DNA of 64,000 bases from Alphaproteobacteria bacterium. GTDB lineage: Bacteria > Pseudomonadota > Alphaproteobacteria > Ferrovibrionales > Ferrovibrionaceae. Within the stretch, counting starts at the first letter, position 1; each line of letters begins with the position of its first letter. The translations under genes and the position numbers were made by a program. Where the stretch lies: assembly GCA_017307375.1 (NCBI GenBank), contig JAFKFH010000008.1:62001-126000 (forward strand), read 5' to 3'. The notes under the pieces were generated by a model. That model searched no databases, was not told the DNA's origin, and worked only from the letters and a program-made list of their open reading frames with translations. This document shows positions 37,480 through 64,000 of the stretch, in pieces.

Positions 37480-37509
37480 CCGGGCATGACGTTGGAGGCC
37501 GGAACGGTG

Positions 37510-37533
37510 GGGGTGGGCGCATCCGCCCACCCC
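37510..37533 (+). terminator. Intercistronic GC-rich hairpin between binding-protein and permease genes
   Basis: GGGGTGGGCG-CATC-CGCCCACCCC is a perfect 10-bp stem with a four-base loop, 31 bases after the binding-protein stop and three bases before the ATG at 37537. No T-run follows. Such hairpins between a binding protein and its permeases often stabilise the upstream mRNA or cause partial termination. Its presence argues against translation starting at the upstream ATG (37486), which would have to read through it. Confidence 0.55.
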
Positions 37534-37536
37534 TCG

Positions 37537-39443: not shown

Positions 39444-39448
39444 GTGCC

Positions 39449-49617: not shown

Positions 49618-50598
49618 TTACACCGGCGTACCCACTAAAGGATAGTGGCAGGCGGCCGAATGCTCGGCTTGCGACAGTCGCGGTTCGTCGGCAGGGCAAC
49701 GCTCGCCGACCTGGTAGCAGCGCGTGCGGAAGCGGCAGCCTGATGGCGGGTTGGCCGGGTTCGGCACGTCGCCGGTCAGGATGATGCGCTGGCGGGCGCG
49801 CTCGCGCTCCGGGTCCGGCAGCGGCGCCGCCGAGAGCAGCGCGCGCGTATAGGGATGCCGGGGATTGGCGTAGAGTTCGTCACGACTGCCCAGCTCGATG
49901 ATCCTGCCGAGATACATCACCGCCACGCGATCCGACAGGTGGCGGACGACCGACAGGTTGTGGGCGATGAAGACATAGGACAGGCCTAGCCGCGCCTGCA
50001 GGTCCTTCAGCAGGTTCAGCACGCCGGCCTGGATCGAGACGTCGAGTGCCGAGACAGGTTCGTCCAGCACCACCACCGACGGGTTCAGGACCAGGGCGCG
50101 GGCGATACCGATGCGCTGACGCTGGCCGCCGGAGAACTCGTGCGGATAGCGCCGGGCGTGATCGGGATCGAGCTGTACCAGGCGCAGCGCCTCGGCGACG
50201 CGATCGGGAATCTCGCTTTCGGCCACCCCGAGATTGCGCAGCGGCTCGGCGATGATGTCGCGGGTGCGCAGCCGCGGATGCAGCGAGGCATAGGGGTCCT
50301 GGAAGACGATCTGCAGATGCTGGCGCAACGGCCGCATCTCGGCCTGGCCAAGCTGGGCAATGTCCTGGCCGCGAAACAGGATCTGCCCGGACGACGGCTG
50401 CAGCAGCCTGACCAGGCAGCGGGCCAGCGTCGACTTGCCGCAGCCGGATTCGCCCACGAGACCCAGGGTTTCGCCGGGTGCCAGATCGAAGGAGACGCCG
50501 GCGACCGCCTGAACCTCGCGCATTTGCCCCCACAGGCCCTTGCCCCGGACCTTGTAGGATTTGACCAGGTTGCGCACCGACAGAACGGGCTCGGTCAT
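49618..50598 (-). CDS. ABC transporter ATPase, DppF/OppF family
   Basis: 326 residues with Walker [16 protein letters not shown], signature [15 protein letters not shown], Walker [14 protein letters not shown], and the C-terminal oligopeptide domain with [17 protein letters not shown] and SAACHYP. In some relatives such cysteines hold an iron-sulfur cluster. It is the last gene of the third Dpp system; the start ATG overlaps the DppD stop by four bases. Confidence 0.95.
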
Positions 50599-51569
50599 GC
50601 CGGCAACTCCTCGGCGCGATGGCAGGCGACGGCCGAGGCGCCGATCCGCCGCGGCAGCGGATCGTCCTGCGCACAGCGGTCGACGGCATCGAGGCAGCGC
50701 GGCGCAAAGGCGCAGCCGGGCGGTCGGCGCGCGGGCGATGGCGGCACGCCGTCGATGGTCGCCAGCCGATCGACATCGTCGTCGAAGCGCGGCAGCGAGG
50801 CCAGCAGCCGGCGGGTATAGGGATGGCGGGGGCGGTAGAAGACCTCGGCCGTCGCTGCCTGCTCGACCACCCGTCCGGCGTACATGATCGCCACGCGGTC
50901 GGCCACGCCCGCGACCAGGCCAAGATCATGGGTGATGAGGATCAGGCCGATGCCGCGGTCGCGCCGCAGCCGTTCCATCACCTCGATCACCTGGGCCTGG
51001 ATCGTCACGTCGAGCGCCGTGGTCGGCTCGTCGGCGATCAGCAGTTCGGGATCGTTGGCCAGCGCCATCGCGATCATCGCGCGCTGGCGCATGCCGCCGG
51101 AAAACTCGAACGGGTATTGCCCGGCCCGCGCCCGCGGATCGGGGATCGCCACCTGGGACAGCAGCTCGACCGCCCGCTCGCGCGCCGAGCGGCGGGACAG
51201 CCCCGGCTGATGGATGCGGATCGCCTCGACGATCTGATCGCCGATCGGAATCACCGGATTCAGCGCCGTCATCGGATCCTGGAAGATCATTGCGATCCGC
51301 CGCCCGCGATAGCGCCGCATGGCGGCCTCGGTCCGGCCAAGCAGTTCTTCACCGTCCAGCCGGACCGAGCCCGAAACTTCGACGTTGGGCGCCAGCAAAC
51401 CCATGATCGACAGCATCGTCAGGCTCTTGCCCGAACCGGATTCGCCGACCAGCCCCAGCACCTCGCCGGCCGCGACGTGGAAATCGACGCCACGCAGCGC
51501 GGCCAGCCGGCCCGCCGGCGATGGAAAGGCGACTTCGAGGCCGCGGACTTCGAGCAGCGGCGCGGTCAT
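50595..51569 (-). CDS. ABC transporter ATPase, DppD/OppD family
   Basis: 324 residues: Walker [16 protein letters not shown], signature [15 protein letters not shown], Walker [16 protein letters not shown]-loop [11 protein letters not shown], and C-terminal [18 protein letters not shown] extension. Works as heterodimer with the product of 49618-50598. Overlaps both neighbours by four bases. Confidence 0.95.
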
Positions 51570-52390
51570 TGGGCCGACCTCGGGTCGAGCAGGTCGCGCA
51601 GGCCGTCACCCAGGAAGTTGAAACCGAGCACGACCGACAGGATCGCAAGCCCCGGCCCCAGCGCCACCCACCATTGATAGAAGTTCACCGCGCCCTCGGC
51701 GATCATCTGCCCCCATTCCGGTGTCGGCGGCAAGGCACCGAGCCCGATGAAGCTGAGCGAGGCGGCGAGCAGAACGATCTGGCCGAGATCCATCGTCGCA
51801 TTGACCAGTACGGGGCTCCAGCAGAGCGGCAGGATATGCCGGGTCAGCACGCGCACGCGGCCGGCGCCGGCGGCGACGGCAGCCTCGACATGCTCGCGCT
51901 CGCGCATCGTCAGCACCTGGGCACGCATCAGCCGGGCATAGACCGGCCAGGAGACGACGACCATGGCAACCGCGGCATTGCCCAGACCCGGCCCCAGCGC
52001 CGCCGTCACGGCCATGGCCAGCAGGATCGCCGGAAACGACAGCGTGATGTCGACCAGCCGCATGATCACGGAATCGGTCTTGCCGCCGAGATAGCCGGCG
52101 ATCGCGCCGAGCATGGCGCCGCCGAGGCTGGAAACCAGCACCACTACCAGCGCGATCGGCAGCGAGTGACGCACGCCGTAGAGCGTCCGGACAAGGACGT
52201 CCCGGCCCAGCCCGTCGGTACCGAGCCAGTGGACGTCCGACGGCGGACGCAGCCGGCGGCCGACGATCGAGAACGGATCGTAGGGCGACCACAGGTCGAT
52301 GGTGAGTGCCACCACGATCCAGAACAGGACGATGAAGCCACCGATGATCATCGGCAGGCCCAGGCGACGAAGCAGAGCCAGCGCCTTCAT
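51566..52390 (-). CDS. ABC transporter permease, DppC/OppC family
   Basis: 274 residues. First membrane segment GLPMIIGGFIVLFWIVVALT; family motif VHWLGTDGLGRDVLVRTLYG; ATPase-contact loop EREHVEAAVAAGAGRVRVLT; typical end [14 protein letters not shown]. Overlaps the DppB-like gene by four bases. Confidence 0.94.
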   Translation of the reverse strand: MKALALLRRLGLPMIIGGFIVLFWIVVALTIDLWSPYDPFSIVGRRLRPPSDVHWLGTDGLGRDVLVRTLYGVRHSLPIALVVVLVSSLGGAMLGAIAGYLGGKTDSVIMRLVDITLSFPAILLAMAVTAALGPGLGNAAVAMVVVSWPVYARLMRAQVLTMREREHVEAAVAAGAGRVRVLTRHILPLCWSPVLVNATMDLGQIVLLAASLSFIGLGALPPTPEWGQMIAEGAVNFYQWWVALGPGLAILSVVLGFNFLGDGLRDLLDPRSAQ

Positions 52391-53400
52391 CCGAGCTTGA
52401 CCCGCGGATCGACCAGCGCGTAGGCGAGGTCGGTGACCAGATTGGTCAGCAGGAAGGCCGAGCCACCGACGATCGTGACGCCCATGATCGCCGGATAGTC
52501 GAGCGAACGCGCGGCATCGACGGTATAGGAACCGATCCCCGGCCAGGAGAAGATCGTTTCGGTCAGGACGGCGCCGGTGATCAGGTAGGCGAACGAGAAG
52601 CCGATGATGGTCAGCGTCGGGATCATCGCATTGCGCAGTGCATGATTGACCAGGACCCGCGGCCCCGATGCCCCCTTGGCGCGAGCAGCCAGGATATAAT
52701 CCTGCGCCAGCACGTCGAGCATCGAGGAACGGACCAGCCGCGAGATGATGCCCATCACCGCCCAGCCGAGCACGCAGGCCGGCAGGATCAGATGGGTCAG
52801 GGCCAGGCGGAAGGTGGTGAAGTCGCCGGCCAGCAGCGCGTCGACCGTATAGAAGCCGGTGACCCCGGGCGGCGGCGTCAGCCGTGCATCGAGCCGGCCT
52901 GGTCCGGGCAGCCAGCCCAGCACCACCGAAAAGACGAACAGCAGCAACAGCCCCGACCAGAAGACGGGCAGCGACGAGCCGAGCAGGGCGACGAACCGGG
53001 CGCCGTGGTCGGCCGCCCGATTGCGATAGCGCGCCGCGACCACGCCGAGCAGGATGCCGCCGCCGACACCGACGACCATGGCCGCGATCACCAGTTCGAG
53101 CGTCGCCGGCAGCCGGTCCATCAAGTCGCGGGCAACCGGCTGCTTGGTCCGCAGCGAGATGCCCATGTCACCCTGGATCAGGTTGCCGACATAGCGCAGA
53201 TAGCGTTCCGGCAGCGGGCGGTCGAGACCCCAGCGGGCCTTGGCCGCCGCCACGATTTCCGGATTGTCCATCTGACGCTCGCCGATGATCGAGATCAGCG
53301 GGTCGCCCTTGGTCAGGTTCGACAGCGCGAAGGCGATGGTGACGATGCCCAGCAACAGCAGGGGCATCGTCACCAGCCGCCCGACGAGGTAGCGAAGCAC
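52387..53400 (-). CDS. ABC transporter permease, DppB/OppB family
   Basis: 337 residues. First membrane segment LVTMPLLLLGIVTIAFALSN, then KGDPLISIIGERQMDNPEIV, the loop AARAKGASGPRVLVNHALRN and the usual end YALVDPRVKLG. Six membrane segments are expected. It starts six bases after the binding-protein stop. Confidence 0.94.
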   Translation of the reverse strand: MLRYLVGRLVTMPLLLLGIVTIAFALSNLTKGDPLISIIGERQMDNPEIVAAAKARWGLDRPLPERYLRYVGNLIQGDMGISLRTKQPVARDLMDRLPATLELVIAAMVVGVGGGILLGVVAARYRNRAADHGARFVALLGSSLPVFWSGLLLLFVFSVVLGWLPGPGRLDARLTPPPGVTGFYTVDALLAGDFTTFRLALTHLILPACVLGWAVMGIISRLVRSSMLDVLAQDYILAARAKGASGPRVLVNHALRNAMIPTLTIIGFSFAYLITGAVLTETIFSWPGIGSYTVDAARSLDYPAIMGVTIVGGSAFLLTNLVTDLAYALVDPRVKLG

Positions 53401-53406
53401 GCCCCG

Positions 53407-55011
53407 TCAGTTCCGCGCGATTTCGTCGAGCGGCAGGTTGCAGCAGGCCGAGTACCGCACCCCCTTGATGGCCTTGGAATGGGCCATGATCATGTCCGGG
53501 CTGACGATCGGGATGATGATCTTGTCCTTGATCATCTCGAGCGCCAGGTCGCGATAGAGCTTGTTCTGCTGATCGGCGGGGGCGGCCAGCGCCTGCTTCA
53601 GCAGATCGGCCTCGCGCGGGTTGATGATATCGGGGGCGTTCGCCGCCCCGGCCCGCTTGGCCCAGGGCGAGCCCTGCATCATCGCGAAGTACTGAACGTA
53701 CTGGGCCGAGCCGTAGTAGTCGGGCGCGTAGAACACCGCGGTCAGCGGCACGCCGTCGCCGGAGACCGCCTCGCGCCAGACGGTGAAGGTCAGCGGCTGC
53801 AGCTTGGCCTTGATGTTGACCTTGGCCAGGTCCTGCTGGACCTTCTGCATCATCTGCGACAGGTCGACGCCGTAGACGTTCATGTTGGGGAAGCGGGCAT
53901 CGATCTCGAAGCCCTTCTCCAATCCGGCCTTGGCCAGCAGCTGCTTGGCCTTGGCCAGATCCTGCTTCGGCTCGGGCAGATTGTCCGAACCGGGGAAGCC
54001 GTTGGGAATCGGCGACGGCTGCGGCCGGCCGGCATCGCCCACCGTGAAGTCGATCAGGCCCTTGTAGTCGAGGGCTGCGGCGATCGCCTCGCGCACTTCG
54101 GGCGTCAGCTTGACGGTGTTCGACTTGGCCCCGGGGCTCAGCGCGATGTAGACGTAGTTGTAGGAGGGGATGGTCGAGACGACGACGTTGCCACCCTTGA
54201 TCGTCTTGGCGGTCTCGCCGTCGACCTGCATGGCGATGTCGGCGGCGCCGGACTGCAGCATCTGCGCCTGGGCGACGGCATCCTTGGTCTGCTTGATCAC
54301 CACCTCGGAAATCGCCGGCGCGGTGCGCCAATAGGCGCCGTTGCGCTTGACCCGCAGTTCGTCGTCGGCGCGATAACCGGCGAGGGTATAGGGGCCGGAG
54401 CCCGCCGAATTGGCCAGGAACCAGGCTTCCGACTTGTCGGCCGTCGCGGCATCCGGGCCGGCGACGGCACCGGCGGCCGTGGCGACCTTGGAATTGATCA
54501 CCCCCATGTAGGGGGCGGCGATCATCCCGAGGAATTCGGAGTTCGGCGAGGCCATCTTGACGACGACGGTCTGCGCGTCGGGGGCTTCGACCGAGGCCAC
54601 GTCGTCCATAAGGAAGGCCGGGCTGCCCTTCAGGTTCTTCAGCCGCTCGAACGACCACTTGACGTCCTTGGCCTCGATGGCGGTGCCGTCGGAGAACTTG
54701 GCCTTGGGGTCGAGCTTGAAGGTGAAGACGGTCTGGTTCTCGTTGACCGTCCACGAGGTCGCGACCTTCGGGGTCAGCGTCTTGTTGTCCGGGCCCAGTC
54801 CGATCAGCGTGTCATAGGCAGCGCTGAAATAGATCTGGCAGGTGTCGCAGAAGCCGCGATGCGGATCCAGCGAATTGATGTCCATGTTGCGGGCGATCAC
54901 CAAGGGCTTGTCCTGGGCCATCGCCGGCAGACCGCCGACGCCCATCGCCAGCATGGCGCCGGCCAGCGCCCAACCCAGATGCCGGCCGGAAATCAAATCA
55001 CGCCTGTTCAT
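53407..55011 (-). CDS. ABC transporter periplasmic substrate-binding protein, family 5 (Dpp/Opp type)
   Basis: 534 residues from ATG 55011, set by GGGAGG six bases upstream. The N-terminus MNRRDLISGRH plus a hydrophobic stretch (LGWALAGAMLAMGVGG, cleavage after AMA) resembles a twin-arginine signal, although the consensus is incomplete. Family 5 blocks include NMDINSLDPHRGFCDTCQIY and VATSWTVNENQTVFTFKLD. Two cysteines near the start of the mature protein (FCDTCQ) are unusual and could form a disulfide. It belongs to the operon with the split transketolase, so its ligand is probably the pathway's substrate or a relative. Confidence 0.92.
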   Translation of the reverse strand: MNRRDLISGRHLGWALAGAMLAMGVGGLPAMAQDKPLVIARNMDINSLDPHRGFCDTCQIYFSAAYDTLIGLGPDNKTLTPKVATSWTVNENQTVFTFKLDPKAKFSDGTAIEAKDVKWSFERLKNLKGSPAFLMDDVASVEAPDAQTVVVKMASPNSEFLGMIAAPYMGVINSKVATAAGAVAGPDAATADKSEAWFLANSAGSGPYTLAGYRADDELRVKRNGAYWRTAPAISEVVIKQTKDAVAQAQMLQSGAADIAMQVDGETAKTIKGGNVVVSTIPSYNYVYIALSPGAKSNTVKLTPEVREAIAAALDYKGLIDFTVGDAGRPQPSPIPNGFPGSDNLPEPKQDLAKAKQLLAKAGLEKGFEIDARFPNMNVYGVDLSQMMQKVQQDLAKVNIKAKLQPLTFTVWREAVSGDGVPLTAVFYAPDYYGSAQYVQYFAMMQGSPWAKRAGAANAPDIINPREADLLKQALAAPADQQNKLYRDLALEMIKDKIIIPIVSPDMIMAHSKAIKGVRYSACCNLPLDEIARN

Positions 55012-55052
55012 GTTAAGCCTCCCGTTATGCCTTCCCCTAACCTGGAACGGGC

Positions 55053-56090
55053 TCATGCCCGTCCCAGGAATTCCTTTGCGACCGCGGTTATGCCCGGCGC
55101 GTCGAGCCGGTAGTGGGCATAGAGCCCCGCCGGCGGCCCGATCAGGGCGAATTCGTCCGGCACGCCATGGCGGCGGAACCTGACGCGCGGCCCGTCGACC
55201 AGCACCTCGGCCACCGCACTGCCGAGACCGCCGGTGACGTTATGCTCTTCGACCACCAGGATCGCGCCCGTCTCCTCGGCCGCCCGGCGGATCGCCGCGG
55301 CGTCGAGCGGCTTGATCGTGTGCATGTCGATCACCCGCGTGGCGATGCCGGCCTCGGCCAGCGCGGCCGCGGCATCGAGCGACGGGCGCAGTTCGGCGCC
55401 CATGGTGATGATCGTCAGGTCGCGGCCCTCGCGCAGGGTGATCGCTTCGCCCAGCCTGAAGTTCTCCGGCACGCGCTCGTAGACCTGGGGGTCGCGGCCG
55501 CGGCCCAGGCGGATGTACATCGCCCCGGGCTGGTCGATCGATGCGCGCAGGACGGCGCGCAGCTGATTGGAGTCGGCCGCCGCCACCACCGTCAGATCGG
55601 CGATCGTGCGCATCATGCCGATGTCTTCGAGCGAATGATGGCTGGTGCCGTAGAACCCCATCGACATGCCGGAATGATGGCCGATGACGCGGACCGGCAA
55701 TTTCGGATAGGCGCAGTCGGTCCTGATGGTCTCGGCCCCGAGGATCGCGGCGAACGAGGCGAAGGTCGCGGCATAGGCGATATGGCCGCAGGACGCCATG
55801 CCCGCCGCCGCCGTGATCATGTTGCGCTCGGCGATGCCGAAATCGAAGAAGCGATCCGGGTGCCGGTGCTCGAAATCGCGGGTCCGATTGGCCGAGGCGA
55901 GGTCGGCGGTCAGCACGACGATGCGCGGATCGCTGTCGGCCAGATCAGCCAGTTCTTCACCCAGGATGAACGCCGGCATCGCCGCCGCCGGCGTCCCCTG
56001 GACCGAGCGGTTGTCCTTCAGGACATTGTCGTCGCCGGCCGTGCCGCGGAAGATCGCGGACTGGTCCTGGCCGTTCTCGATGTCAGCCAT
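55053..56090 (-). CDS. Transketolase, C-terminal subunit (split transketolase)
   Basis: 345 residues from ATG 56090, one base after the N-terminal subunit's stop. The pyrimidine-binding half carries the TPP-activating glutamate in FFDFGIAERNMITAAAGMAS and AATFASFAAILGAETI. The C-terminal domain includes VVEEHNVTGGLGSAVAEVL. The first 35 residues (GQDQSAIFRGTAGDDNV) are an extension not obviously needed for the fold. Together with the partner it would transfer two-carbon ketol units. Split transketolases are common in catabolic clusters for unusual sugars or ketols, so the housekeeping pentose pathway need not be the setting. Confidence 0.9.
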   Translation of the reverse strand: MADIENGQDQSAIFRGTAGDDNVLKDNRSVQGTPAAAMPAFILGEELADLADSDPRIVVLTADLASANRTRDFEHRHPDRFFDFGIAERNMITAAAGMASCGHIAYAATFASFAAILGAETIRTDCAYPKLPVRVIGHHSGMSMGFYGTSHHSLEDIGMMRTIADLTVVAAADSNQLRAVLRASIDQPGAMYIRLGRGRDPQVYERVPENFRLGEAITLREGRDLTIITMGAELRPSLDAAAALAEAGIATRVIDMHTIKPLDAAAIRRAAEETGAILVVEEHNVTGGLGSAVAEVLVDGPRVRFRRHGVPDEFALIGPPAGLYAHYRLDAPGITAVAKEFLGRA

Positions 56091-56091
56091 G

Positions 56092-56964
56092 TCAGGCCTC
56101 CACACGGGGCTGCAGACCCGCCATGATCTCGTTCCAGGCGTCGTCGTAATCCTCGCCGACGAGATTGCCGACATGCCAGTTGAGGCTGAGTTCCATGCGC
56201 TTGACGCCGCGCCCCTTGATGGTGTCGGCGATGATCAGCTGCGGCTTGCCCTCGCCGGCGGGCTTCAGCCCTTCCAGCGCCGCCATGACCGCCTCGAGGT
56301 CATGGCCGTCGATACGCTGCACCGCCCAGCCGAAACTGGCGAAACGATCACCGATCGGCTCCACCGACATCACCTGCTCGGTATTGCCGTCGATGCAGAG
56401 CTGGTTGCGGTCGACGATGGCGACGAGGCCCTGCAGCTTGAAATGGCCGGCGGCCATCGCCGCCTCCCACACCTGCCCTTCGTTCAGCTCACCGTCGCCG
56501 AGCATGCAGTAGACCCGGAAGTCGCGCTTCTCGACCCGGCCCGAAAGGGCCATGCCGACGCCGACCGAGAGACCGTGGCCGAGCGAGCCGGACGAGAAAT
56601 CGACACCCGGAATCTTCTTCATGTCCGGGTGGTCGCCGAAGGGCGAGCCGAGCCGGGTGTAGTTCTCCAAAAGCTTCATGTCGTAGAAGCCGAGGTCGGC
56701 CAGCACCGGATAGAGCCCGATGGCGGCATGGCCCTTTGACAGGATGAAGCGGTCACGGTCGGGCCAGCGCGGCTCGGCCGGATTGATGCGCAGATGGGCG
56801 TAATAGAGTGCAGCGAACAGCTCGGCCGCCGAGAAGGTCGACGAATAATGGCCGGCCCCGGCGATGCGCGACAGCCTCAGCGTCTCGAGCCGCACGAAGC
56901 GAGCCCGGTCGGCCAGGAAATCGAGGGAAACGTTGTGCCCTCGGGAGGTATCGGGCCGGGTCAT
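56092..56964 (-). CDS. Transketolase, N-terminal (TPP-diphosphate-binding) subunit
   Basis: 290 residues. The thiamine-diphosphate/Mg motif is GDGELNEGQVWEAAMAAGH ending in VDRNQL; substrate-channel histidines appear in RIAGAGHYSSTFSAAE and GSLGHGLSVGVGMAL. Other blocks are RFILSKGHAAIGLYPVLADL and PLIIADTIKGRG-like QLIIADTIKGRGVK. It is the first gene after the GntR regulator, with a candidate operator 17-33 bases before its ATG, so it probably heads its own transcript including the Dpp transporter downstream. Confidence 0.92.
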   Translation of the reverse strand: MTRPDTSRGHNVSLDFLADRARFVRLETLRLSRIAGAGHYSSTFSAAELFAALYYAHLRINPAEPRWPDRDRFILSKGHAAIGLYPVLADLGFYDMKLLENYTRLGSPFGDHPDMKKIPGVDFSSGSLGHGLSVGVGMALSGRVEKRDFRVYCMLGDGELNEGQVWEAAMAAGHFKLQGLVAIVDRNQLCIDGNTEQVMSVEPIGDRFASFGWAVQRIDGHDLEAVMAALEGLKPAGEGKPQLIIADTIKGRGVKRMELSLNWHVGNLVGEDYDDAWNEIMAGLQPRVEA

Positions 56965-57038: not shown

Positions 57039-57779
57039 TTAATCGTCTTCTTTGTCGTCGGCGTCGCGGCCGCGTTCGGCCTCGATGCGCTCGAGATGTT
57101 CGAGGAACTTCTGCCCGCCCTCGATCAGGTCCTCGCGGATGGCATGGCATAAGGCGTCGCTGTCGCGGCGCTTCAGCGCCTCGATCACCAGGGCGTGCTG
57201 ATGCTCGCCGGCATAGGTCGGATGGCCGTAGGGATAGAGGAAGTTCAGCATCGGCCCGACCTGGATCCACAGGCTTTCCAGCATCTCGATCAGGACCGGC
57301 ATCTCGGACTTCCAGTAGAGCCCGAAGTGGAACTCGAAATTGGCCCGGATCGCGGTGTCGTAGTCGCGGTCCGTCTCGGCCTTGACCAGGCGCGCATGCG
57401 CGGCGGCAAGCTTGCGCAGAGTCGCCTCGTCGATCCGCTGCAACGCGCGCTCGGCGGCCAGCGGTTCGAGCTTCAGCCGGATGTCGCGGATCTCCAGATA
57501 CTCGGCCACCGACAGGCGACGCACCCGGATGTAGTGCCGGGGCTTCAGTTCCAGGGCCCGGTCGCGGACGAGCTGGAAGACGGCTTCGCGTACCGGCGTC
57601 TCCGACGTGCCCAACGCCTCGGCCAGTTCCCTGATACGCAGCCGCTGGTGCGGCTTCAGCAGGCCGCGCATCAGCCGCTCGCGGAGCTGCAGATAGATGC
57701 TGTCGCTCAGCGATTGCGGGGCGACAGGTTCGAATTCCGATTGGGCGCCGCGCCGCATGTCAGCCGCCCCGGCGCGCAT
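57039..57779 (-). CDS. GntR-family (FCD subfamily) transcriptional regulator
   Basis: 246 residues. Winged helix: SLSDSIYLQLRERLMRGLLK, then LRIRELAEALGTSETPVREA. The helical FCD effector domain follows (EYLEIRDIRLKLEPLAAERA; FEFHFGLYWKS; GEHQHALVIEALKRRD), with histidines and an aspartate suited to a metal-bound carboxylate ligand. The ATG overlaps the aminotransferase stop (TGATG, 57777-57781). Two copies of a 17-bp palindrome, one on each side of the aminotransferase-gntR pair, are its likely operators, which makes it the local and self-regulating repressor. Confidence 0.92.
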   Translation of the reverse strand: MRAGAADMRRGAQSEFEPVAPQSLSDSIYLQLRERLMRGLLKPHQRLRIRELAEALGTSETPVREAVFQLVRDRALELKPRHYIRVRRLSVAEYLEIRDIRLKLEPLAAERALQRIDEATLRKLAAAHARLVKAETDRDYDTAIRANFEFHFGLYWKSEMPVLIEMLESLWIQVGPMLNFLYPYGHPTYAGEHQHALVIEALKRRDSDALCHAIREDLIEGGQKFLEHLERIEAERGRDADDKEDD

Positions 57780-59005
57780 CAGCCGCGTGCGGCCACGGCC
57801 GCCAGCGCGGCATCGGTCGCCTCGAGCGCCTGGTCGATGTCGTCGGCCGTATGGGCCGCGGACAGGAACATGGTATGGGCCGGATGGAGATAGACGCCAC
57901 GTTTCAACGCCTCGACGCAGAAGAGATTGCCCTTGGCTCGATCGGCGTCGTCGTCGAACAGCAGCACGGGCATCTGCGTCGGCCCGGTCTGGCGGATGGC
58001 CACGCCGTGCCGGGCCGCCTGGGCGGCGATACCGTCGCGCAGGCGCTGGCCCATGCGCCGCATGTGGGCGACGCCATCGATTGCGCGCAGCTTGCGAATC
58101 GTCGCCAGCGCGGCCGCCATCGCCACCGATGTGTACCAGAACGAGCCGGTGGTGAATACCTGGGCAGCGGCGTCGCGGAAACGGTCGTTGCCGGTGACGG
58201 CGGCCAGCGCATAGCCGTTGGCGATCGCCTTGCTGTAGGCGGACAGGTCAGGGCGGACCCCGACGGTTTCCCAGGTACCGCCGAGGTCGATGCGGAAGCC
58301 CGAGCGGACATCGTCGACGATCAGCGCGGCACCGGCCGCATCGGCAAGCCGCCGGCAGGCTGCGGCAAATTCCGGTGTCGGCATCTCGTGATCGAAACCC
58401 TGGTCGCATTTGAAGCCGGTGACCAGGATCGCGGCGAGATCGTCACCGGCCGACGCCACGGCCGCCTCGATGCTCGCAATATCGTTGAAGAGGTAGTGGG
58501 CGATATGGGCGCGATCCTCCGCCGTCACGCCGACCAGCGACGGCGTGCACCACGGCGCCGCCCCATGATAGGCGCCCTTGGCCACCAGGATCTTGCGCCG
58601 CCTCGTGCCGGCGCGCGCGATCGTCACGCAGGCGGTCGTCGCGTCCGTGCCGTTCTTCGCCATGATCGTCCAGGCGGCGTGCGGGATCACGTCGACCAGC
58701 AGTTCGGCGAGGTCGACCAGCGCCTCGCCCGGCCCGTTGAAACAGTCACCCTTGGCGCGCTGTGCGTCTACCGCCGCCTCGACGTCGGGGTCATGGTGGC
58801 CCAGCACGATCGGCCCCCAGCTGCACATGAAATCGAGATATTCCTGGCCATCGACATCCCACAGGCGGCTGCCCTGGCCACGCTCGAAGAACTGGGGATA
58901 GCCTTCCGGCAGGCGCCTGGCATCGAGATGCCCCCACATGCCGTTCGGAATAACCCGTGCCGCGCGCTGGCGCAGGCTCGAATCCCTCGAATTGGTTCCG
59001 GCCAT
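57779..59005 (-). CDS. Class III aminotransferase, glutamate-1-semialdehyde aminomutase-like
   Basis: 408 residues. RVIPNGMWGHLDARRLPEGY, then RLWDVDGQEYLDFMCSWGP; the phosphate-binding region reads MAKNGTDATTACVTIARA; cofactor aspartate D231 (LIVDDVRSGFR); PLP lysine K259 (LSAYSKAIANGYAL). The GTDATT variant of the usual GTEAN block sets it apart from HemL and from the aminotransferase at 42065-43303. The substrate is unknown; context suggests an amine or amino-ketone derived from amide hydrolysis. A palindromic operator precedes it at 59027-59043. Confidence 0.87.
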   Translation of the reverse strand: MAGTNSRDSSLRQRAARVIPNGMWGHLDARRLPEGYPQFFERGQGSRLWDVDGQEYLDFMCSWGPIVLGHHDPDVEAAVDAQRAKGDCFNGPGEALVDLAELLVDVIPHAAWTIMAKNGTDATTACVTIARAGTRRRKILVAKGAYHGAAPWCTPSLVGVTAEDRAHIAHYLFNDIASIEAAVASAGDDLAAILVTGFKCDQGFDHEMPTPEFAAACRRLADAAGAALIVDDVRSGFRIDLGGTWETVGVRPDLSAYSKAIANGYALAAVTGNDRFRDAAAQVFTTGSFWYTSVAMAAALATIRKLRAIDGVAHMRRMGQRLRDGIAAQAARHGVAIRQTGPTQMPVLLFDDDADRAKGNLFCVEALKRGVYLHPAHTMFLSAAHTADDIDQALEATDAALAAVAARG

Positions 59006-59090: not shown

Positions 59091-59996
59091 TCAGGCGTAA
59101 GCGATCGGGGTGCCGAGCCAGCCCTGCGCCTTGCGGCCCCAGTATTCGTCATGCAGCCGGCGCGTGACCGGGCCGGGTTCACCCCCCGCCACCTTGCGGC
59201 CGTTGATCAACGTGACCGGCATGATGCCGCCGGCGGTCGACGACAGAAACACCTCGTCGGCATCGTCGAGGGCCGCGACCGGCACCACCGTCGCCTCGAC
59301 GGGCAAGCCGAGTTCCGCGCAGAGTTCGAGCACCGTGCGCCGGGTCATGCCGTCGAACACGCCGCTGTCGGGCGTCACCAGCCGGCCGTCCTTGACCACG
59401 AACAGGTTGAAGCCGGGGCCTTCCGTCAGGTTGCCCTGGCCGTCGTGCAGCACGTCGATGTCGGCGCCCTGGTCGAAGGCTTCGAACAACCCCTGGGTCA
59501 GATCGAGCCAATGGAAATTCTTGATCGTCGGGTCGAGCGAGGTCGGCGGGATGCGCCGAACCGACGAGACATGGAGATGCAGCCCCCTCGCCCGCTGCTC
59601 GTCGTTGGCGATCCAGACGAAAGGCGTGGCGAAAGCATAGAACCGGTTGTCGCAGAGGCGCGGATCGCGCGTGCCCTTCGGGGCGATACCGCGGGTCAGG
59701 GTCATCTGCACATAGGCTTCGCGCAGACCCGACAGGCGCACGCATTCGATCAGGATTCGGCGTAGTTCGTCGCGGCCGAACGGCAAGGTCAGGCGCAGGG
59801 CCCGCGCATTGCGTTCGAACCGGTCGAGATGATCGTCGAGGCGGAAGGCATAGCCCTGCCAGACATGAAACACGTCATAGGTGGCGTCCGAGCGGACGAA
59901 GCCGCGGTCGAGCAGCGGGATGCGCGCCTCGGCGACCGGCACGAACTGTCCTTCGACATGGGCTGCGCCGGCGGCGAACGGATTGGTCTCGGCCAT
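59091..59996 (-). CDS. Fold-type IV PLP aminotransferase, (R)-amine transaminase-like
   Basis: 301 residues. The PLP lysine is K159 in DPTIKNFHWLDL, and E192 is in NLTEGPGFN. SDATYDVFHVWQGYAFRLDD near 36 and SSVRRIPPTSLDPTIKN near 144 are, from memory, strikingly like the characterised (R)-selective amine transaminases (ATA-117 type), more than D-alanine or branched-chain aminotransferases; VFLSSTAGGIMPV also fits. It would convert an amine to a carbonyl compound with pyruvate or a keto acid as acceptor. It is encoded three bases after a shikimate-dehydrogenase-like gene, in one operon with a dimethylformamidase-type amidase, so the amine may come from amide hydrolysis. Confidence 0.88.
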   Translation of the reverse strand: MAETNPFAAGAAHVEGQFVPVAEARIPLLDRGFVRSDATYDVFHVWQGYAFRLDDHLDRFERNARALRLTLPFGRDELRRILIECVRLSGLREAYVQMTLTRGIAPKGTRDPRLCDNRFYAFATPFVWIANDEQRARGLHLHVSSVRRIPPTSLDPTIKNFHWLDLTQGLFEAFDQGADIDVLHDGQGNLTEGPGFNLFVVKDGRLVTPDSGVFDGMTRRTVLELCAELGLPVEATVVPVAALDDADEVFLSSTAGGIMPVTLINGRKVAGGEPGPVTRRLHDEYWGRKAQGWLGTPIAYA

Positions 59997-59999
59997 GCT

Positions 60000-60764
60000 T
60001 CATCCTCCCCGCAGGAAACGGATAACCGCGTCGAACTGATGGTCCAGCATCCGCTGGCCGCCGAGCGTGCGGCAGCCGCGCGCCGTCGCCGCGCGCTCGA
60101 AGGCGGTCGGCCCGTCGCCGATGACGATATCGCAGACATCGGTGGCGGGCGACAGCAGCCCGGCATCGACCGGCAGCGGATCGTCCGGCTTCAGGCCGAG
60201 CGACGTCGCATTGACGACGAGATCGAAACCGCGCGGATCGGCGGGGCCGGCCGACGCGCCGACCTCGCCGGCCAGGGCCTCGGCACGCGCCAGGTTGCGG
60301 TTGGCGATGACGAGATCGGCACCGGCATCGGCCAGCATGAACGCGATCGACCGCGCCGCGCCGCCCGCGCCGACCAGCAGGACCCGCCGGCCGGCGATGG
60401 TGAAGCCCGCTTCGTCGAGCGCGGCCTTCAGCCCGACGCCATCGAACATTTCGCCGGTCAGCCTGCCGTCCGGCTCGATCCGTACCGCATTGGCCGAGCC
60501 GCAGAGCCGCGCCTGCGGCAGCAAGGTGTCGCAGTGGCGCGCCACCGCCTCCTTGTGCGGCACGGTGACGAGGAACCCGCCGACGTTGCCCAGGCGGGCC
60601 AGCCGCGGCAATGTCGCGTCGAAGTCGTCGGGCAGCACATGCAGCGGCACGACCATCGCATCGATCCCGCGCGCCTCGAAGATCGGGTTGAGGATCCGGT
60701 TGACGCGGACGTGGCCGACCGGATGGGCGAGCTGGAAATAGAGCCGCGTATGACCGGTCAGCAT
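60000..60764 (-). CDS. Shikimate dehydrogenase-like oxidoreductase with altered substrate pocket
   Basis: 254 residues, slightly shorter than AroE (about 272). The catalytic lysine (K71, VTVPHKEA) and aspartate (D108, MFDGVGL), N92 and the NADP motifs VGAGGAARS and NRNLARAEAL are present. At the N-terminus the two serines that hold the shikimate carboxylate in AroE (HSKSP) are both valine here (HPVGHVRVN, V19 and V21). It is therefore unlikely to be the biosynthetic enzyme and probably reduces or oxidises another hydroxy- or amino-carbonyl compound. It overlaps the amidase gene by seven bases, which ties it to that pathway. Confidence 0.85.
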   Translation of the reverse strand: MLTGHTRLYFQLAHPVGHVRVNRILNPIFEARGIDAMVVPLHVLPDDFDATLPRLARLGNVGGFLVTVPHKEAVARHCDTLLPQARLCGSANAVRIEPDGRLTGEMFDGVGLKAALDEAGFTIAGRRVLLVGAGGAARSIAFMLADAGADLVIANRNLARAEALAGEVGASAGPADPRGFDLVVNATSLGLKPDDPLPVDAGLLSPATDVCDIVIGDGPTAFERAATARGCRTLGGQRMLDHQFDAVIRFLRGG

Positions 60765-63013
60765 GCGTCGGGCATTGCGAAGGGGGTGGCATCGAGGAAA
60801 CGGCGCACGACATTCTCGGTCAGCCGGCTCACGTTGTTGTCGTAGCCGCTGGTACCGAGCGACAGCAGGTAGGAAATCGAGCCGGTCGAGAACACGGCGC
60901 CGCCGTCGGGCGTCTCGAAGAACACCATGTCGGCCCGGACATGGGCGTTCTGGTCGCCGCCCAGCCCGTGCACCATGGTCCGGAATTCTTCCGGCGAGGG
61001 CAGCGATCCCGGGCCGAGGCCTTCGGACGTCGCCACCACCAGCGCGTGCGGCGGCGAGCCGAGTTCGAGATCGAAGCGGTCGATCTCGACCCCGACCGCA
61101 CCGCCATAGCGCAGCCCGAACTTGCCGATCGGTTCATGCCGGTCGAGGCCTGCGAAGATGAAGGCCGCCCGCGGATCATCGCTCTGGCCCGTGCGCTCAT
61201 ACCAGCCGGAACGGTCGTAGACCATGGCGACGAAGCCGACGCCGACCAGCTTCTGCGGCGCGAAGCCGGAATGCCGCCAGAGACCGCCTGGCTCGCCGGT
61301 ACCGGCCATGTGGACTTCGCCCGAGACGCTTTCCCAGGTCCGCGTGCCGGTGAGGCCGCGGCGCATCTCCAGCACCGACGGGCAAGCCGGGTGGAATGCG
61401 CAACGCCAGTAGAAGCCGTTGCCGCCGAAATAGATATGACGCCCGCCCCGGCCCTGATGGGCCAGCAGCGCGTTCATCATGCCGGCGGTGTAGTACTCGG
61501 GATGCGACAGTGTCGCGACCGTCAGATAGGGCTGCAACGCGGCCGCGCCCTGCCGGTCCAGCTCGACGTCGGTCAGCACGTCGTAGTCGATGCCCTTCTC
61601 CTCCAGCCAGTCGAGGAAATGGGTATCGACCGCGTAGTTGAACGGGTTCGAGCGCGGCCGGGTATTGAGGATCGGCCGCCGCCACGACGAATGGCAATGG
61701 CCCGAACCGTCGACATGCTTGTCGTAGGTCGACTGGCCCAGTTCGGGGTTCTCCTGCAGGAACACGTCGTCGGGGGTCAACTGCAGGACGCTTTCCAGCA
61801 GTGCTTCGAAATGGACATGATCGAGGCGCAGCGCCGAATTGGCATAGGCCAGGAAGGTGGCGGTCGAGGCGACGACGGCCAGCTTCGCCCGCGGCTGATG
61901 CCTGCCCGGCGTCACGAAGAACGGCACGTAGCTCTCGGCCGGCTGCGCCGGGTCCTCGACGACCGGCCGCAGGCGCAGCGTGTAGAAGCCCGAACGCCAG
62001 TCGGCCGGGACGGCGAGCGTCAGGGTCGGCTGCCACAGGCAGTCGACGATGTCGTCGCTGTGAAAGTGGATTGCGCCGTACTGGGTCGGATCCAGCCGCC
62101 AATCCTGGATCCGGCCGTCCCAGCGCACGCCGATCGCCGCGCGCATCGGCATCTGGTGCAGCCGGCCGTCGAAGCGATTGGCCGAGAGGTCGCTGGCGAC
62201 GAGCGTCGGAATGCCGAGCGAGAAATCCCACAGCCCGACCAGCCCGGGATCGACCGCACCCGGCCGCGGGTCGGCATCGAACTGGCGCAGCGCGGCATCG
62301 TCGATCACCCCCGCATAAACCCGCGGGCGTTCGATCTTGCCGTCGACATGAGCCTCGTAAAGGCCAGCCCCGGCCGACTGGGCGCCGATCACGAAAGGTG
62401 CATCGGCGTCGAGCCGCCAGGCAGCGGCGTGGCGGATGTCGGCCACGAGGCGACGCGCCGGCAGATTGCCGTCGGCCAGCCGCAGCTGGGTCACGATCAC
62501 CCGGCCACTGGCCGGATCGAGGGTCGCCGATATCCAGTACCAGCGGCGCAGTTCCAGGGCCGCCCCGGTGGTCACCACGATCGGCTCGGCGTCGGTGCCG
62601 AGCCGCAGTCCGGCGCCGTCGGGACCGATGGTCAGCGCCCAGCCCGTATTGCCCGACCAGCAGGCCATGACGCTGCGCGTCCGGTCCTCGATCAGTGTCG
62701 GGAAGACATAGGCGCCGACCGACAGGCCGGATGCCGGCGCGAACAGCGTCGACGGCGGGACGACGATGCAGGAACCGGGGCGGATCGGCTGCAGCATGCC
62801 TTTGTGTTCGCCGTCGATGGCCGACGGCATCGGCTTGAGTCGGAGACCCGGGCCGGCGGGATCCGCATCGGCGCAGCGCACGCGCAGGATGTCGGCACGG
62901 AAATCGCCGCGGCGGCTCGAGACATGGAAGGTGATGGTCTCGCCGGCGGGCACGCTGAGCCGGTCGGTGTAACCGAGATAGCCGTTGGTGTCGAAGGTCA
63001 CGGGCTCAGTCAA
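60758..63013 (-). CDS. N,N-dimethylformamidase-type amidase, large (beta) subunit
   Basis: 751 residues, close to the known large subunit of about 760. Dimethylformamidase uses a mononuclear iron held by two tyrosines and a glutamate; the equivalent residues here appear to be Y390 (FLAYANSA), Y430 (QSTYDKHVDG) and E506, with the nearby histidine H504 in LSHPEYYTAG, and E643 (GVEIDRFD). The N-terminal half holds a jelly-roll lectin-like domain (YWISATLDPASG; FVIGAQSAG). It has no signal peptide. It would hydrolyse a formamide or small N-substituted amide to acid and amine. It overlaps the small-subunit gene by eight bases. The substrate is not necessarily dimethylformamide, since no dimethylamine-oxidising gene is nearby. 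Confidence 0.9.
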   Translation of the reverse strand: MTEPVTFDTNGYLGYTDRLSVPAGETITFHVSSRRGDFRADILRVRCADADPAGPGLRLKPMPSAIDGEHKGMLQPIRPGSCIVVPPSTLFAPASGLSVGAYVFPTLIEDRTRSVMACWSGNTGWALTIGPDGAGLRLGTDAEPIVVTTGAALELRRWYWISATLDPASGRVIVTQLRLADGNLPARRLVADIRHAAAWRLDADAPFVIGAQSAGAGLYEAHVDGKIERPRVYAGVIDDAALRQFDADPRPGAVDPGLVGLWDFSLGIPTLVASDLSANRFDGRLHQMPMRAAIGVRWDGRIQDWRLDPTQYGAIHFHSDDIVDCLWQPTLTLAVPADWRSGFYTLRLRPVVEDPAQPAESYVPFFVTPGRHQPRAKLAVVASTATFLAYANSALRLDHVHFEALLESVLQLTPDDVFLQENPELGQSTYDKHVDGSGHCHSSWRRPILNTRPRSNPFNYAVDTHFLDWLEEKGIDYDVLTDVELDRQGAAALQPYLTVATLSHPEYYTAGMMNALLAHQGRGGRHIYFGGNGFYWRCAFHPACPSVLEMRRGLTGTRTWESVSGEVHMAGTGEPGGLWRHSGFAPQKLVGVGFVAMVYDRSGWYERTGQSDDPRAAFIFAGLDRHEPIGKFGLRYGGAVGVEIDRFDLELGSPPHALVVATSEGLGPGSLPSPEEFRTMVHGLGGDQNAHVRADMVFFETPDGGAVFSTGSISYLLSLGTSGYDNNVSRLTENVVRRFLDATPFAMPDAC

Positions 63014-63341
63014 GCTTCAGCTCCTGTCCGGTCAGCGCCCGCCAGCGCAAGGTGAAGACGTGCCATTCGGCCTCGTCGAGCGAGGTGAACAGCCGCGACT
63101 TGTCGATCTTCACGGGCAGGCCGCGCTTGCCCGGCATCTCGGCCAGCCACCAGGCGCGTCCCGGATCGGCGACCACCAGCACCCAGCGCCCCTTCAGGGG
63201 ACCCCAGCGCATGCGGTTCAACAGGGCACGCAACTCCTCCGAATGCGGGCCGCGGATCTTTGCCCTGAATTCGCGGGCAAGATCCAGCCGCGCCGGATCG
63301 AGGCGATAGCGGGCGGCGGCGGGATCGTCGGTATGCATCAT
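63006..63341 (-). CDS. N,N-dimethylformamidase-type amidase, small (alpha) subunit
   Basis: 111 residues from ATG 63341, with GGAG ten bases upstream; ATG 63338 and an in-frame GTG at 63362 are alternatives. Helical N-terminal part (YRLDPARLDLAREFRAKIRG; EELRALLNRMRWGPLKGRW) and a beta-rich end (YVLVV-like WVLVVADPGRAWWLAEMPGK; DEAEWHVFTLRWRALTGQ) match the short partner of dimethylformamidase, which is about 130 residues. Immediate linkage and overlap with the large-subunit gene support the assignment. Its role is structural in the heterodimer. Confidence 0.83.
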   Translation of the reverse strand: MMHTDDPAAARYRLDPARLDLAREFRAKIRGPHSEELRALLNRMRWGPLKGRWVLVVADPGRAWWLAEMPGKRGLPVKIDKSRLFTSLDEAEWHVFTLRWRALTGQELKLD

Positions 63342-63397
63342 CGGACAGGCACTCCGGACCACCGGGCGGCGCGCGGGCGCCGCCCGGCTTCAGGGAC

Positions 63398-64000
63398 TTA
63401 CTTGGTCAGCCAGGCGACCCAGCGTTCACGCAGCATGTCGCGGTTGGCGCCGATCCAGGCGTAGTCGGGCTTGAGCTGGGCATCCCAGTTCTCGGGAACC
63501 GTCGCCATCAGCTTGCGGCGCTCGGGCGTCACCAGCGGGGCCACCTGGGCCGAGCCAGTGTCGTAGAACACCTTCTGCACGAAGCCGAGATGGTTTTCGG
63601 CCGCGTTCTTGTAGAAGAAGTCGAGATAGGCCATCGCCGCCTTCGGATGCGGTGCCTGCTTCATCACCGCCATGTAGCCGACATCGGGGATTGCCTGCCC
63701 CCAGGTCAGGCTGATCGGCAGCCCCTCGTTGACCAGCTGCACCGCGCGACCGGAATAGCTCATCACCATCACGGCTTCGTTGTTGCGCAGGATCTGCTGG
63801 ATCTGCCCGCCCGACTTCCACCAGACCGCGACATGAGGCTTGATCTGGTCGAGCTTCTTGTAGGCCCGGTCGAGGTCCAGCGGGAACATCTTGTCGGCCG
63901 GCACCCCGTCCGCGGCGAGCGCGGCGACCGGAACCCACCATTCGCGATCGCCGGTATCGGGCAGCGAGCGCGGGCCGGGGAAGTTCTGGACGTCGAAGAA
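63398..64000 (-). CDS. Periplasmic spermidine/putrescine-type (PotD-like) binding protein, C-terminal part
   Basis: The frame is open from the window edge to the stop at 63398, giving 200 residues of the C-terminal half. Visible blocks are FFDVQNFPGPRSLPDTGDRE, DLDRAYKKLDQIKPHVAVWW, GGQIQQILRNNEAVMVMSYS and HPKAAMAYLDFFYKNAAENH, typical of PotD/family 1 binding proteins for polyamines and related cations. The remainder, and presumably permeases and ATPase, lie beyond the edge. It is 56 bases upstream of the amidase small-subunit gene and probably delivers the amidase substrate. Confidence 0.87.
   Translation of the reverse strand, partial: FFDVQNFPGPRSLPDTGDREWWVPVAALAADGVPADKMFPLDLDRAYKKLDQIKPHVAVWWKSGGQIQQILRNNEAVMVMSYSGRAVQLVNEGLPISLTWGQAIPDVGYMAVMKQAPHPKAAMAYLDFFYKNAAENHLGFVQKVFYDTGSAQVAPLVTPERRKLMATVPENWDAQLKPDYAWIGANRDMLRERWVAWLTK

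What the first reader, a model, noticed from the sequence alone, without database searches (positions are those of the whole stretch)
59091..64000. Dimethylformamidase-type amidase in one operon with an (R)-amine transaminase-like enzyme and a polyamine-type binding protein
Seen: PotD-like binding protein, both amidase subunits, an AroE-like oxidoreductase and a fold-IV transaminase run in one direction with overlaps of 7-8 bases or gaps of 3-56. Known: dimethylformamidase uses a 2-Tyr-1-carboxylate iron site and releases an amine; (R)-amine transaminases turn chiral amines into ketones. Inference: the operon imports an N-substituted amide, hydrolyses it and deaminates the released primary amine. 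A true dimethylformamide pathway would instead need dimethylamine oxidation, which is absent. I know of no described pathway with this gene set.
Basis: partly seen in the sequence, partly recalled or inferred. Interest (0 to 1): 0.78.

Follow-up and report, generated by a model that had tools for sequence, protein, structure and literature searches.

The report
Conserved N-acyl amine catabolism gene cluster
A bacterium carries a long gene cluster that probably imports an amide-bound amine, cuts the amide with an iron enzyme and strips off the amino group; most of the cluster recurs in bacteria of other families, so it looks like a real but undescribed nutrient pathway whose exact food molecule is unknown.

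Summary
At 59091-64000 lie a solute-binding protein, both subunits of a dimethylformamidase-family amidase (iron-site residues kept; small subunit confirmed by profile and model), a divergent AroE-like oxidoreductase and a fold-IV transaminase. The operon continues both ways. Past 64000 are PotABC-type genes, a second aminotransferase and a divergent 3-oxo-tetronate kinase/aldolase pair. Towards lower coordinates are another aminotransferase, a GntR regulator, a split transketolase and a Dpp/Opp importer.

Synteny supports a pathway, but not exactly the proposed gene set. Rhizobium sp. SSA_523 and genome G534 carry kinase-aldolase-AroE-PotABC-binding protein-small-large amidase plus GntR and a FumI-like aminotransferase, without the fold-IV gene. 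In five Rhizobiaceae plasmids the fold-IV gene directly follows a FumI-like aminotransferase, without this amidase.

Best reading: an undescribed, modular catabolic cluster for an N-acylated hydroxy-amine. Amide hydrolysis releases a primary amine, transaminases make a ketone, and kinase/aldolase or thiamine enzymes break it down. The substrate is not identified; dimethylformamide is unlikely.

The parts
63398..64000 (-). Solute-binding protein, SBP_bac_8 / PotD-like type, C-terminal part; the gene runs on past the window edge (L005:5399-6487)
   Evidence: Pfam SBP_bac_8 9.2e-15 on the part and 3.4e-29 on the whole; NCBIfam PotD only 1.5e-4, far below cut-off
63006..63362 (-). Amidase small subunit (DMFase small-subunit family)
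   Evidence: profile hit to 6lvb_B 1.1e-9; model matches 6lvb_B
60758..63013 (-). Amidase large subunit (DMFase large-subunit family), Fe ligands Y390, Y430, E506, catalytic H504 and N532
   Evidence: PDB 6lvb 7.5e-122, N-acetyl-(R)-beta-phenylalanine acylase 8huy 2e-121; the five residues invariant in 105 of 105 aligned rows
60000..60764 (-). AroE-like (shikimate dehydrogenase superfamily) oxidoreductase, divergent
   Evidence: below the aroE cut-off (150.0 against 200.2 bits)
59091..59996 (-). Fold-IV transaminase, nearest solved relatives (R)-amine transaminases
   Evidence: PDB 8zm7 2.7e-94, 4ce5 5.6e-92
57779..59005 (-). FumI-like class III aminotransferase (first of two)
   Evidence: PDB 6hbs aminopentol aminotransferase 5.5e-128, next best 3.4e-49; 47.4% to FumI
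57039..57779 (-). GntR/FCD regulator
   Evidence: 40-59% homologues in FumI-linked clusters
56092..56964 (-). Split transketolase, N-terminal chain
   Evidence: Transketolase_N 2.3e-50; 77% homologue in G354 beside a FumI-like gene
55053..56174 (-). Split transketolase, C-terminal chain (true start probably further inside the ORF)
   Evidence: PDB 6yaj, C-terminal chain of a split transketolase, 1.9e-68
49618..55056 (-). Dpp/Opp-type ABC importer: DppA 53407-55056, DppB 52387-53400, DppC 51566-52390, ATPases 50595-51569 and 49618-50598
   Evidence: ORFs and translations; SBP_bac_5 1.4e-71 for DppA; 57-73% homologues in the same order in G354

Best explanation
The window holds the richest version I found of a modular catabolic cluster for an N-acylated, hydroxylated primary amine. 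Proposed order: (1) a PotABCD-type importer (and perhaps the Dpp importer) takes up the amide; (2) a two-subunit Fe(III) amidase with a 2-Tyr-1-Glu site hydrolyses it to acid and primary amine; (3) FumI-like class III aminotransferases, in the window joined by a fold-IV transaminase that could take the other enantiomer, turn the amine into an alpha-hydroxyketone; (4) the ketone is phosphorylated by a 3-oxo-tetronate-kinase-type enzyme and split by a class II aldolase, and/or split by a thiamine-dependent split transketolase; (5) the AroE-like enzyme adjusts an alcohol/ketone. A substrate of the form acyl-NH-CH(CH2OH)-CH(OH)-R fits steps 3 and 4; with R = COOH the ketone would be 3-oxo-tetronate, whose known path ends in dihydroxyacetone phosphate. 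Shown: families, the amidase's key residues, synteny, statistical linkage. Inferred: reaction order, direction and substrate class.
For: Amidase: Fe ligands and the essential His and Asn invariant in 105 of 105 rows, small subunit confirmed. Gene set conserved elsewhere: Rhizobium sp. SSA_523 plasmid pHM3 has OtnK-OtnC-AroE-PotA-PotB-PotC-SBP-small-large-(568-aa ORF)-TktN-TktC, then GntR and a FumI-like gene; genome G534 has the same without Tkt. Partial sets: G198 PotABC-SBP-GntR-SBP-small-large-FumI-like; G354 AroE-OtnC-OtnK divergent from FumI-like-GntR-TktN-TktC-DppABCDF; Pseudoroseomonas cervicalis pL11-B and two Variovorax paradoxus VAI-C plasmids. Around FumI-like genes: kinase plus class II aldolase in 7 of 20 genomes and 10 of 14 plasmid places against 0 of 16 control loci centred on AroE or fold-IV relatives; DMFase-type C-terminal-domain proteins in 7 of 20 and 4 of 14 against 0 of 16; amidase-signature genes in 3 of 20 and 2 of 14 against 1 of 16, and an annotated penicillin-acylase gene in one Variovorax place. 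OtnK passes the NCBIfam 3-oxo-tetronate kinase cut-off, 411.6 against 350. In the FumI tree the enzyme FumI groups (95/94) with four aminotransferases, each in a locus with this amidase.
Against: Nothing tests substrate or activity. Many FumI-like genes have neither amidase nor kinase/aldolase: 9 of 20 genomes show none of DMFase-type, kinase plus aldolase, Tkt or E1, and 1 of 14 plasmid places (L270) likewise. With the window's genome excluded the genome-set contrasts are modest (6 of 19 against 0 of 16, p 0.022), and the plasmid rows are not independent (three Shinella plasmids are near copies). OtnC is below the 3-oxo-tetronate-phosphate decarboxylase cut-off (106.5 against 250). The window's aminotransferases are not in FumI's own starred subgroup. 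The fold-IV enzyme is absent from the two most complete relatives. Two importers in one run of genes may mean two adjacent operons rather than one.
Confidence: 0.55

Rival explanations
1. Import and hydrolysis of an N-acyl beta-amino acid such as N-acetyl-beta-phenylalanine, with transamination of the freed beta-amino acid to a beta-keto acid.
For: The large subunit matches N-acetyl-(R)-beta-phenylalanine acylase 8huy as well as it matches DMFase (2e-121 and 7.5e-122); beta-phenylalanine aminotransferase 4ao9 and beta-transaminase 2yku are among the class III hits. 3-oxo-tetronate would itself be a beta-keto acid.
Against: 4ao9 scores 2.6e-28 where FumI scores 5.5e-128. In the tree the acylase lies in another clade from the window's subunit (both on long branches). 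The kinase/aldolase and transketolase genes have no place in a phenyl-substituted pathway.
Confidence: 0.2
2. Two or three neighbouring but separate pathways: an amide-uptake/hydrolysis operon that supplies nitrogen, a FumI-GntR-Tkt-Dpp operon, and an OtnK/OtnC-TRAP sugar-acid operon, together by chance or for shared regulation.
For: FumI-like-GntR-TktN-TktC-DppABCDF exists without the amidase in G354's locus; Pot-small-large exists without aminotransferase in Reyranella loci L048-L050; TRAP genes adjoin OtnC.
Against: The same modules come together again in Rhizobium sp. SSA_523 and G534, and partly in G198 and P. cervicalis.
Confidence: 0.2
3. A true N,N-dimethylformamide pathway.
For: Family membership of both subunits.
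Against: DMF yields a secondary amine, which transaminases cannot use (established chemistry); no dimethylamine-oxidising gene noticed among the ORFs read; the constricting Phe693 of the DMFase pocket is Thr here, though that column is variable in the family (F in 18 of 105 rows); the tree places DMFase in another clade.
Confidence: 0.04

Closest known systems
Paracoccus N,N-dimethylformamidase (PDB 6lvb; PMC7686228)
   Same: Large and small subunit families; Fe ligands Y399, Y440, E521 and essential H519, N547 all conserved
   Different: Separate clade, Phe693 gate replaced by Thr, operon with transaminases instead of dimethylamine oxidation
N-acetyl-(R)-beta-phenylalanine acylase (PDB 8huy, 8i59, 8i5a; known here only from the PDB titles)
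   Same: Equal overall similarity to the large subunit and the same five active-site residues
   Different: Separate clade; whether it has a small subunit was not established here
FumI aminopentol aminotransferase of Sphingopyxis sp. MTA144 (PDB 6hbs; PMC2933618, passages seen)
   Same: Both class III aminotransferases are 47-49% identical to it and far closer to it than to any other solved structure
   Different: Outside FumI's own subgroup; linked to OtnK/OtnC and to the amidase
(R)-selective amine transaminases (PDB 8zm7, 4ce5)
   Same: Best hits of the fold-IV enzyme at E 2.7e-94 and 5.6e-92
   Different: Position of E117 of the Aspergillus enzyme is Gln and F115 is Tyr
L-threonate / D-erythronate catabolism with OtnK and OtnC (PMC12540250, passages seen; Zhang et al. 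2016 only as cited there)
   Same: OtnK passes the 3-oxo-tetronate kinase cut-off
   Different: No LtnD or OtnI noticed beside it; instead aminotransferases and amidase

Membership tests
DMFase-type two-subunit Fe amidase | 2-Tyr-1-Glu iron site plus essential His and Asn in the large subunit | tested here: met
   Y390, Y430, E506, H504, N532; columns invariant in 105 of 105 rows
DMFase-type two-subunit Fe amidase | Small subunit of the DMFase fold encoded next to the large one | tested here: met
   Profile hit 1.1e-9, Foldseek best hit 6lvb_B, genes overlap by 8 bases
N,N-dimethylformamidase (function) | Pocket constricted by Phe693 | tested here: not met
   Thr in the window's protein; the column is variable across 105 rows
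N,N-dimethylformamidase (function) | Hydrolysis of DMF | not testable with these tools
   -
N-acetyl-(R)-beta-phenylalanine acylase | Same clade as the characterised enzyme | tested here: not met
   8huy lies in another, starred group, on a long branch; quick tree
FumI-like aminotransferase (broad) | Closer to FumI than to GSAM, GABA or beta-amino-acid aminotransferases | tested here: met
   5.5e-128 and 2.3e-132 to 6hbs, next best 3.4e-49 and 4.6e-48
FumI itself (aminopentol deamination) | Same starred subgroup as FumI in the tree | tested here: not met
   FumI groups with L258, L261, L051, L052; the window's two lie elsewhere
(R)-amine transaminase | Residue E117 (Aspergillus enzyme numbering, PMC5131300) | tested here: not met
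   Gln at the aligned position; overall similarity is high
(R)-amine transaminase | Activity on (R)-amines | not testable with these tools
   -
Shikimate dehydrogenase (AroE) | aroE family cut-off | tested here: not met
   150.0 against 200.2 bits
Shikimate dehydrogenase (AroE) | Catalytic Lys and Asp kept, carboxylate-binding Ser pair kept (roles recalled) | tested here: not met
   Lys (VPHK) and Asp (FDGVG) kept, the HSxS serines replaced (HVRV) in the alignment to 1nvt
3-oxo-tetronate kinase | NCBIfam equivalog cut-off | tested here: met
   411.6 against 350; the gene is past the window edge, L005:10597-11889
[quoted passage not shown]
   106.5 against 250; class II aldolase family certain
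Polyamine (Pot) ABC importer | potA subfamily cut-off and PotD cut-off | tested here: not met
   potA 354.0 against 355.6, just under; PotD 20.8 against 582; importer family likely, substrate not polyamine by this test

The most novel reading that the evidence does not exclude
An undescribed bacterial pathway for N-acylated 2-amino-1,3-diols or 3-amino-3-deoxytetronate-like acids: an iron amidase frees the amine, an enantio-complementary pair of transaminases (FumI-like and fold-IV) oxidises both configurations to an alpha-hydroxyketone, and kinase plus aldolase, or thiamine enzymes, deliver central metabolites such as dihydroxyacetone phosphate. Fumonisin-degrading FumI would be a specialised offshoot of this pathway, and fold-IV amine transaminases would gain a physiological role.
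Probability: 0.3. Interest if true: 0.7.

Novelty: new variant of a known kind. Interest (0 to 1): 0.5.

Why it matters
If true, the cluster gives FumI-type and fold-IV amine transaminases, both prized as biocatalysts, a natural setting with a defined upstream reaction, and extends the rare 2-Tyr-1-Glu iron amidases from a solvent pollutant to natural amides. It is testable at once in a named organism, Rhizobium sp. SSA_523, because the genes sit together on one plasmid. In the open-access library I found no paper joining these parts: two searches that combined dimethylformamidase with 'tetronate kinase' and 'class III aminotransferase', and 'four-carbon acid sugar', 'class III aminotransferase', 'split transketolase' and 'aminopentol' (at least two terms each), returned 0 papers. 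A third, with 'dimethylformamidase', 'aminotransferase', 'operon' and 'amidase', matched 191 papers on three of four terms; none of the 12 listed contained 'dimethylformamidase', and the other 179 were not seen. Subscription journals are mostly missing from that library.

Tried and rejected
Considered and set aside: dimethylformamide catabolism (secondary amine, pocket residue, clade); N-acetyl-beta-phenylalanine as the sole substrate (weak match of the aminotransferases to beta-phenylalanine aminotransferases, kinase/aldolase left unexplained; kept as a rival); shikimate/quinate metabolism for the AroE-like gene (below cut-off, serine pair lost); polyamine uptake (no cut-off met).

Led nowhere: single-sequence PDB search with the small subunit; Pfam scan of 52 small subunits (no convincing family); paper search for the N-acetyl-beta-phenylalanine acylase by strain names (0 papers); paper search for FumJ and the fumonisin cluster; neighbourhoods of the closest fold-IV relatives (L212-L216) and AroE relatives (L201, L202, L208-L211, L217-L220, L224), which showed none of amidase, FumI-like gene, kinase or class II aldolase and served as controls. 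One search counted 6 of 20 genomes with a DMFase-type protein, with one more query, counts 7, and I use.
Full report
What is there. The window is G000:C12:62001-126000 of a 7.54-Mb genome. Reading past the edge (L005) the minus-strand run goes on upstream as binding protein, PotC-, PotB- and PotA-type genes and a second class III aminotransferase, whose ATG start is 61 bases from a divergent OtnK-OtnC pair. Towards lower coordinates it continues as class III aminotransferase, GntR/FCD regulator, split transketolase N and C chains and a DppABC/OppDF importer.

The amidase. The large subunit matches DMFase (7.5e-122) and N-acetyl-(R)-beta-phenylalanine acylase (2e-121) equally. The Fe ligands Y399, Y440 and E521 and the essential H519 and N547 of DMFase (text of PMC7686228, parts 1 and 2 read) are present and invariant in 105 of 105 aligned rows. 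Phe693, said there to constrict the pocket, is Thr here; that column is variable (F in 18, I in 24, V in 18, T in 15 of 105). The small subunit, invisible to single-sequence search, is a DMFase small subunit by profile (1.1e-9) and by model. A quick tree of 105 rows puts the window's subunit in a starred clade of ten with the genome's own second copy, Ferrovibrio, Mesorhizobium, G198, roseomonads and Reyranella; DMFase and the acylase each lie in other clades, on long branches.

The transaminases. The fold-IV enzyme is closest to (R)-amine transaminases (2.7e-94), but at the place of E117 of the Aspergillus terreus enzyme it has Gln. The two class III enzymes have FumI, the fumonisin-deaminating aminotransferase, as best solved relative by a wide margin (5.5e-128 and 2.3e-132, next best 3.4e-49 and 4.6e-48), with 47.4 and 48.5% identity. 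FumI converts a 2-amino-3-hydroxy chain to the 2-ketone with pyruvate as acceptor (passages of PMC2933618).

Synteny, unbiased by amidase. In a sample of 385 genomes of the class, FumI-like genes (E up to 1e-75) occur in 13, the small subunit (E up to 1e-5) in 36, the fold-IV enzyme (E up to 1e-60) in 60. Five of the 13 FumI genomes also have the small subunit (36 of 385 overall). A phylum sample of 398 genomes gave 9 FumI genomes. I looked at all 20 distinct genomes from both samples, and at all 14 places in 13 plasmid records, by tblastn with the window's proteins and four more queries. DMFase-type C-terminal-domain proteins were near in 7 of 20 and 4 of 14; small subunits in 3 of 20 and 4 of 14; a kinase (DUF1537 or PfkB) plus class II aldolase in 7 of 20 and 10 of 14; fold-IV transaminases in 1 of 20 (the window) and 5 of 14. 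Split transketolase was near in 2 of 20 plus the window's own, which lies outside the locus scanned, and in 2 of 14; an E1-type thiamine enzyme in 1 of 20 and 5 of 14. Sixteen control loci centred on AroE or fold-IV relatives had 0 of 16 for amidase, kinase, aldolase and FumI-like genes. Without the window's genome the genome contrasts are 6 of 19 against 0 of 16 both for the DMFase-type proteins and for kinase plus aldolase (p 0.022). Several plasmid rows are near copies, so p values for that set overstate independence. Short-domain DMFase-type proteins in G242 and G630 were verified by Pfam; the one in G370 rests on tblastn alone.

Full clusters elsewhere. Rhizobium sp. SSA_523 plasmid pHM3: OtnK-OtnC-AroE-PotA-PotB-PotC-SBP-small-large-568-aa ORF-TktN-TktC, then GntR on the other strand and a FumI-like gene. 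G534: the same without Tkt; the ORF after the large subunit is a second DMFA2_C protein there. G198: PotABC-SBP-GntR-SBP-small-large-FumI-like. G354: AroE-OtnC-OtnK divergent from FumI-like-GntR-TktN-TktC-DppABCDF. Pseudoroseomonas cervicalis pL11-B: FumI-like divergent from OtnK-OtnC-amidase-small-large. Variovorax paradoxus VAI-C has, on two plasmids, FumI-like-SBP-small-large-SDR-Dpp and, elsewhere, FumI-like-GntR-transketolase pair-amidase-penicillin acylase-Dpp. Three Shinella plasmids, Agrobacterium sp. T29 and Sinorhizobium sp. RAC02 have a fold-IV gene directly after the FumI-like one, with OtnK/OtnC, an E1-type enzyme and Dpp, but no DMFase-type amidase in the stretch.

What conserved sets exclude. 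The set amidase + AroE + fold-IV transaminase was seen only in the window. Among the 80 best of 345 named amidase loci, AroE had 0 hits; fold-IV homologues 9, one on the amidase strand; FumI-like genes (50% or more) 2. In the class survey 4 of 23 genomes with both have fold-IV and small-subunit genes within 10 kb (window, G046, G176, G292), where contig breaks may hide others.

How it most likely works. Different, unrelated amide hydrolases recur beside FumI-like aminotransferases (DMFase-type; amidase-signature in G004, G534, G627 and two plasmid places, with 1 of 16 controls also positive; an annotated penicillin acylase in one), which suggests that the amine arrives as an amide. Kinase plus class II aldolase, split transketolase or E1 enzymes recur as well; all can act on a ketone of the form HOCH2-CO-CH(OH)-R (established chemistry of these families), which is what a FumI-like enzyme would make from a 2-amino-1,3-diol or from 3-amino-3-deoxytetronate. 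OtnK meets the 3-oxo-tetronate kinase cut-off; OtnC is a class II aldolase below every cut-off tested. OtnK and OtnC turn 3-oxo-tetronate into dihydroxyacetone phosphate in known pathways (passages of PMC12540250). The step order, the direction and the substrate are inference. An AroE-like enzyme with catalytic residues but without the carboxylate-binding serines (roles recalled) could be an alcohol/ketone oxidoreductase.

Link to FumI. In a careful tree of 29 rows FumI groups with aminotransferases of the two Variovorax plasmids and two roseomonads (95/94), each in a locus with small and large amidase subunits.

Limits. No substrate, activity or expression evidence. Gene calls in unannotated loci come from a simple ORF script. 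The large-subunit tree used the quick method. Absence statements hold only for the stretches fetched.

Noticed in passing
G000:C36:15334-17933 (L013): A second small + large amidase pair (52% large subunit) in the same genome, with GntR and a Dpp/Opp importer and no aminotransferase hit in the 20-kb stretch.
   Followed up: partly
window 37486-43303: Another catabolic island in the window: Opp/Dpp importer, phosphotriesterase-like 41028-42068 and a further class III aminotransferase 42065-43303, apart from the operon studied (names by eye).
   Followed up: no
L005:12538-18990: TRAP transporter genes and IorAB-type 2-oxoacid oxidoreductase genes next to OtnK/OtnC (names by eye).
   Followed up: no
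L204, L205, L077, L221: Tandem large subunits (two or three) sharing one small subunit, and one locus with two small-large pairs.
   Followed up: no
L251:7102-8772 and L257:15294-17000: A shorter DMFA2_C protein without the N-terminal lectin-like part directly after the large subunit (Pfam 8e-73 for the L251 copy; the L257 ORF not scanned).
   Followed up: partly
L195, L196 (genomes G176, G046): Small-large-fold-IV transaminase in a row, with a more distant fold-IV enzyme (40%) and a separate amidase clade.
   Followed up: partly
L265:14283-18756 (Agrobacterium sp. T29): Genes annotated as dimethylamine monooxygenase subunit DmmA, DUF3445 and a PDR/VanB oxidoreductase a few genes after the FumI-like/fold-IV pair.
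   Followed up: no
L236, L252, L253, L269: FumI-like gene with PfkB kinase and class II aldolase, with TonB receptors annotated or visible in some, in sphingomonad-type genomes.
   Followed up: partly
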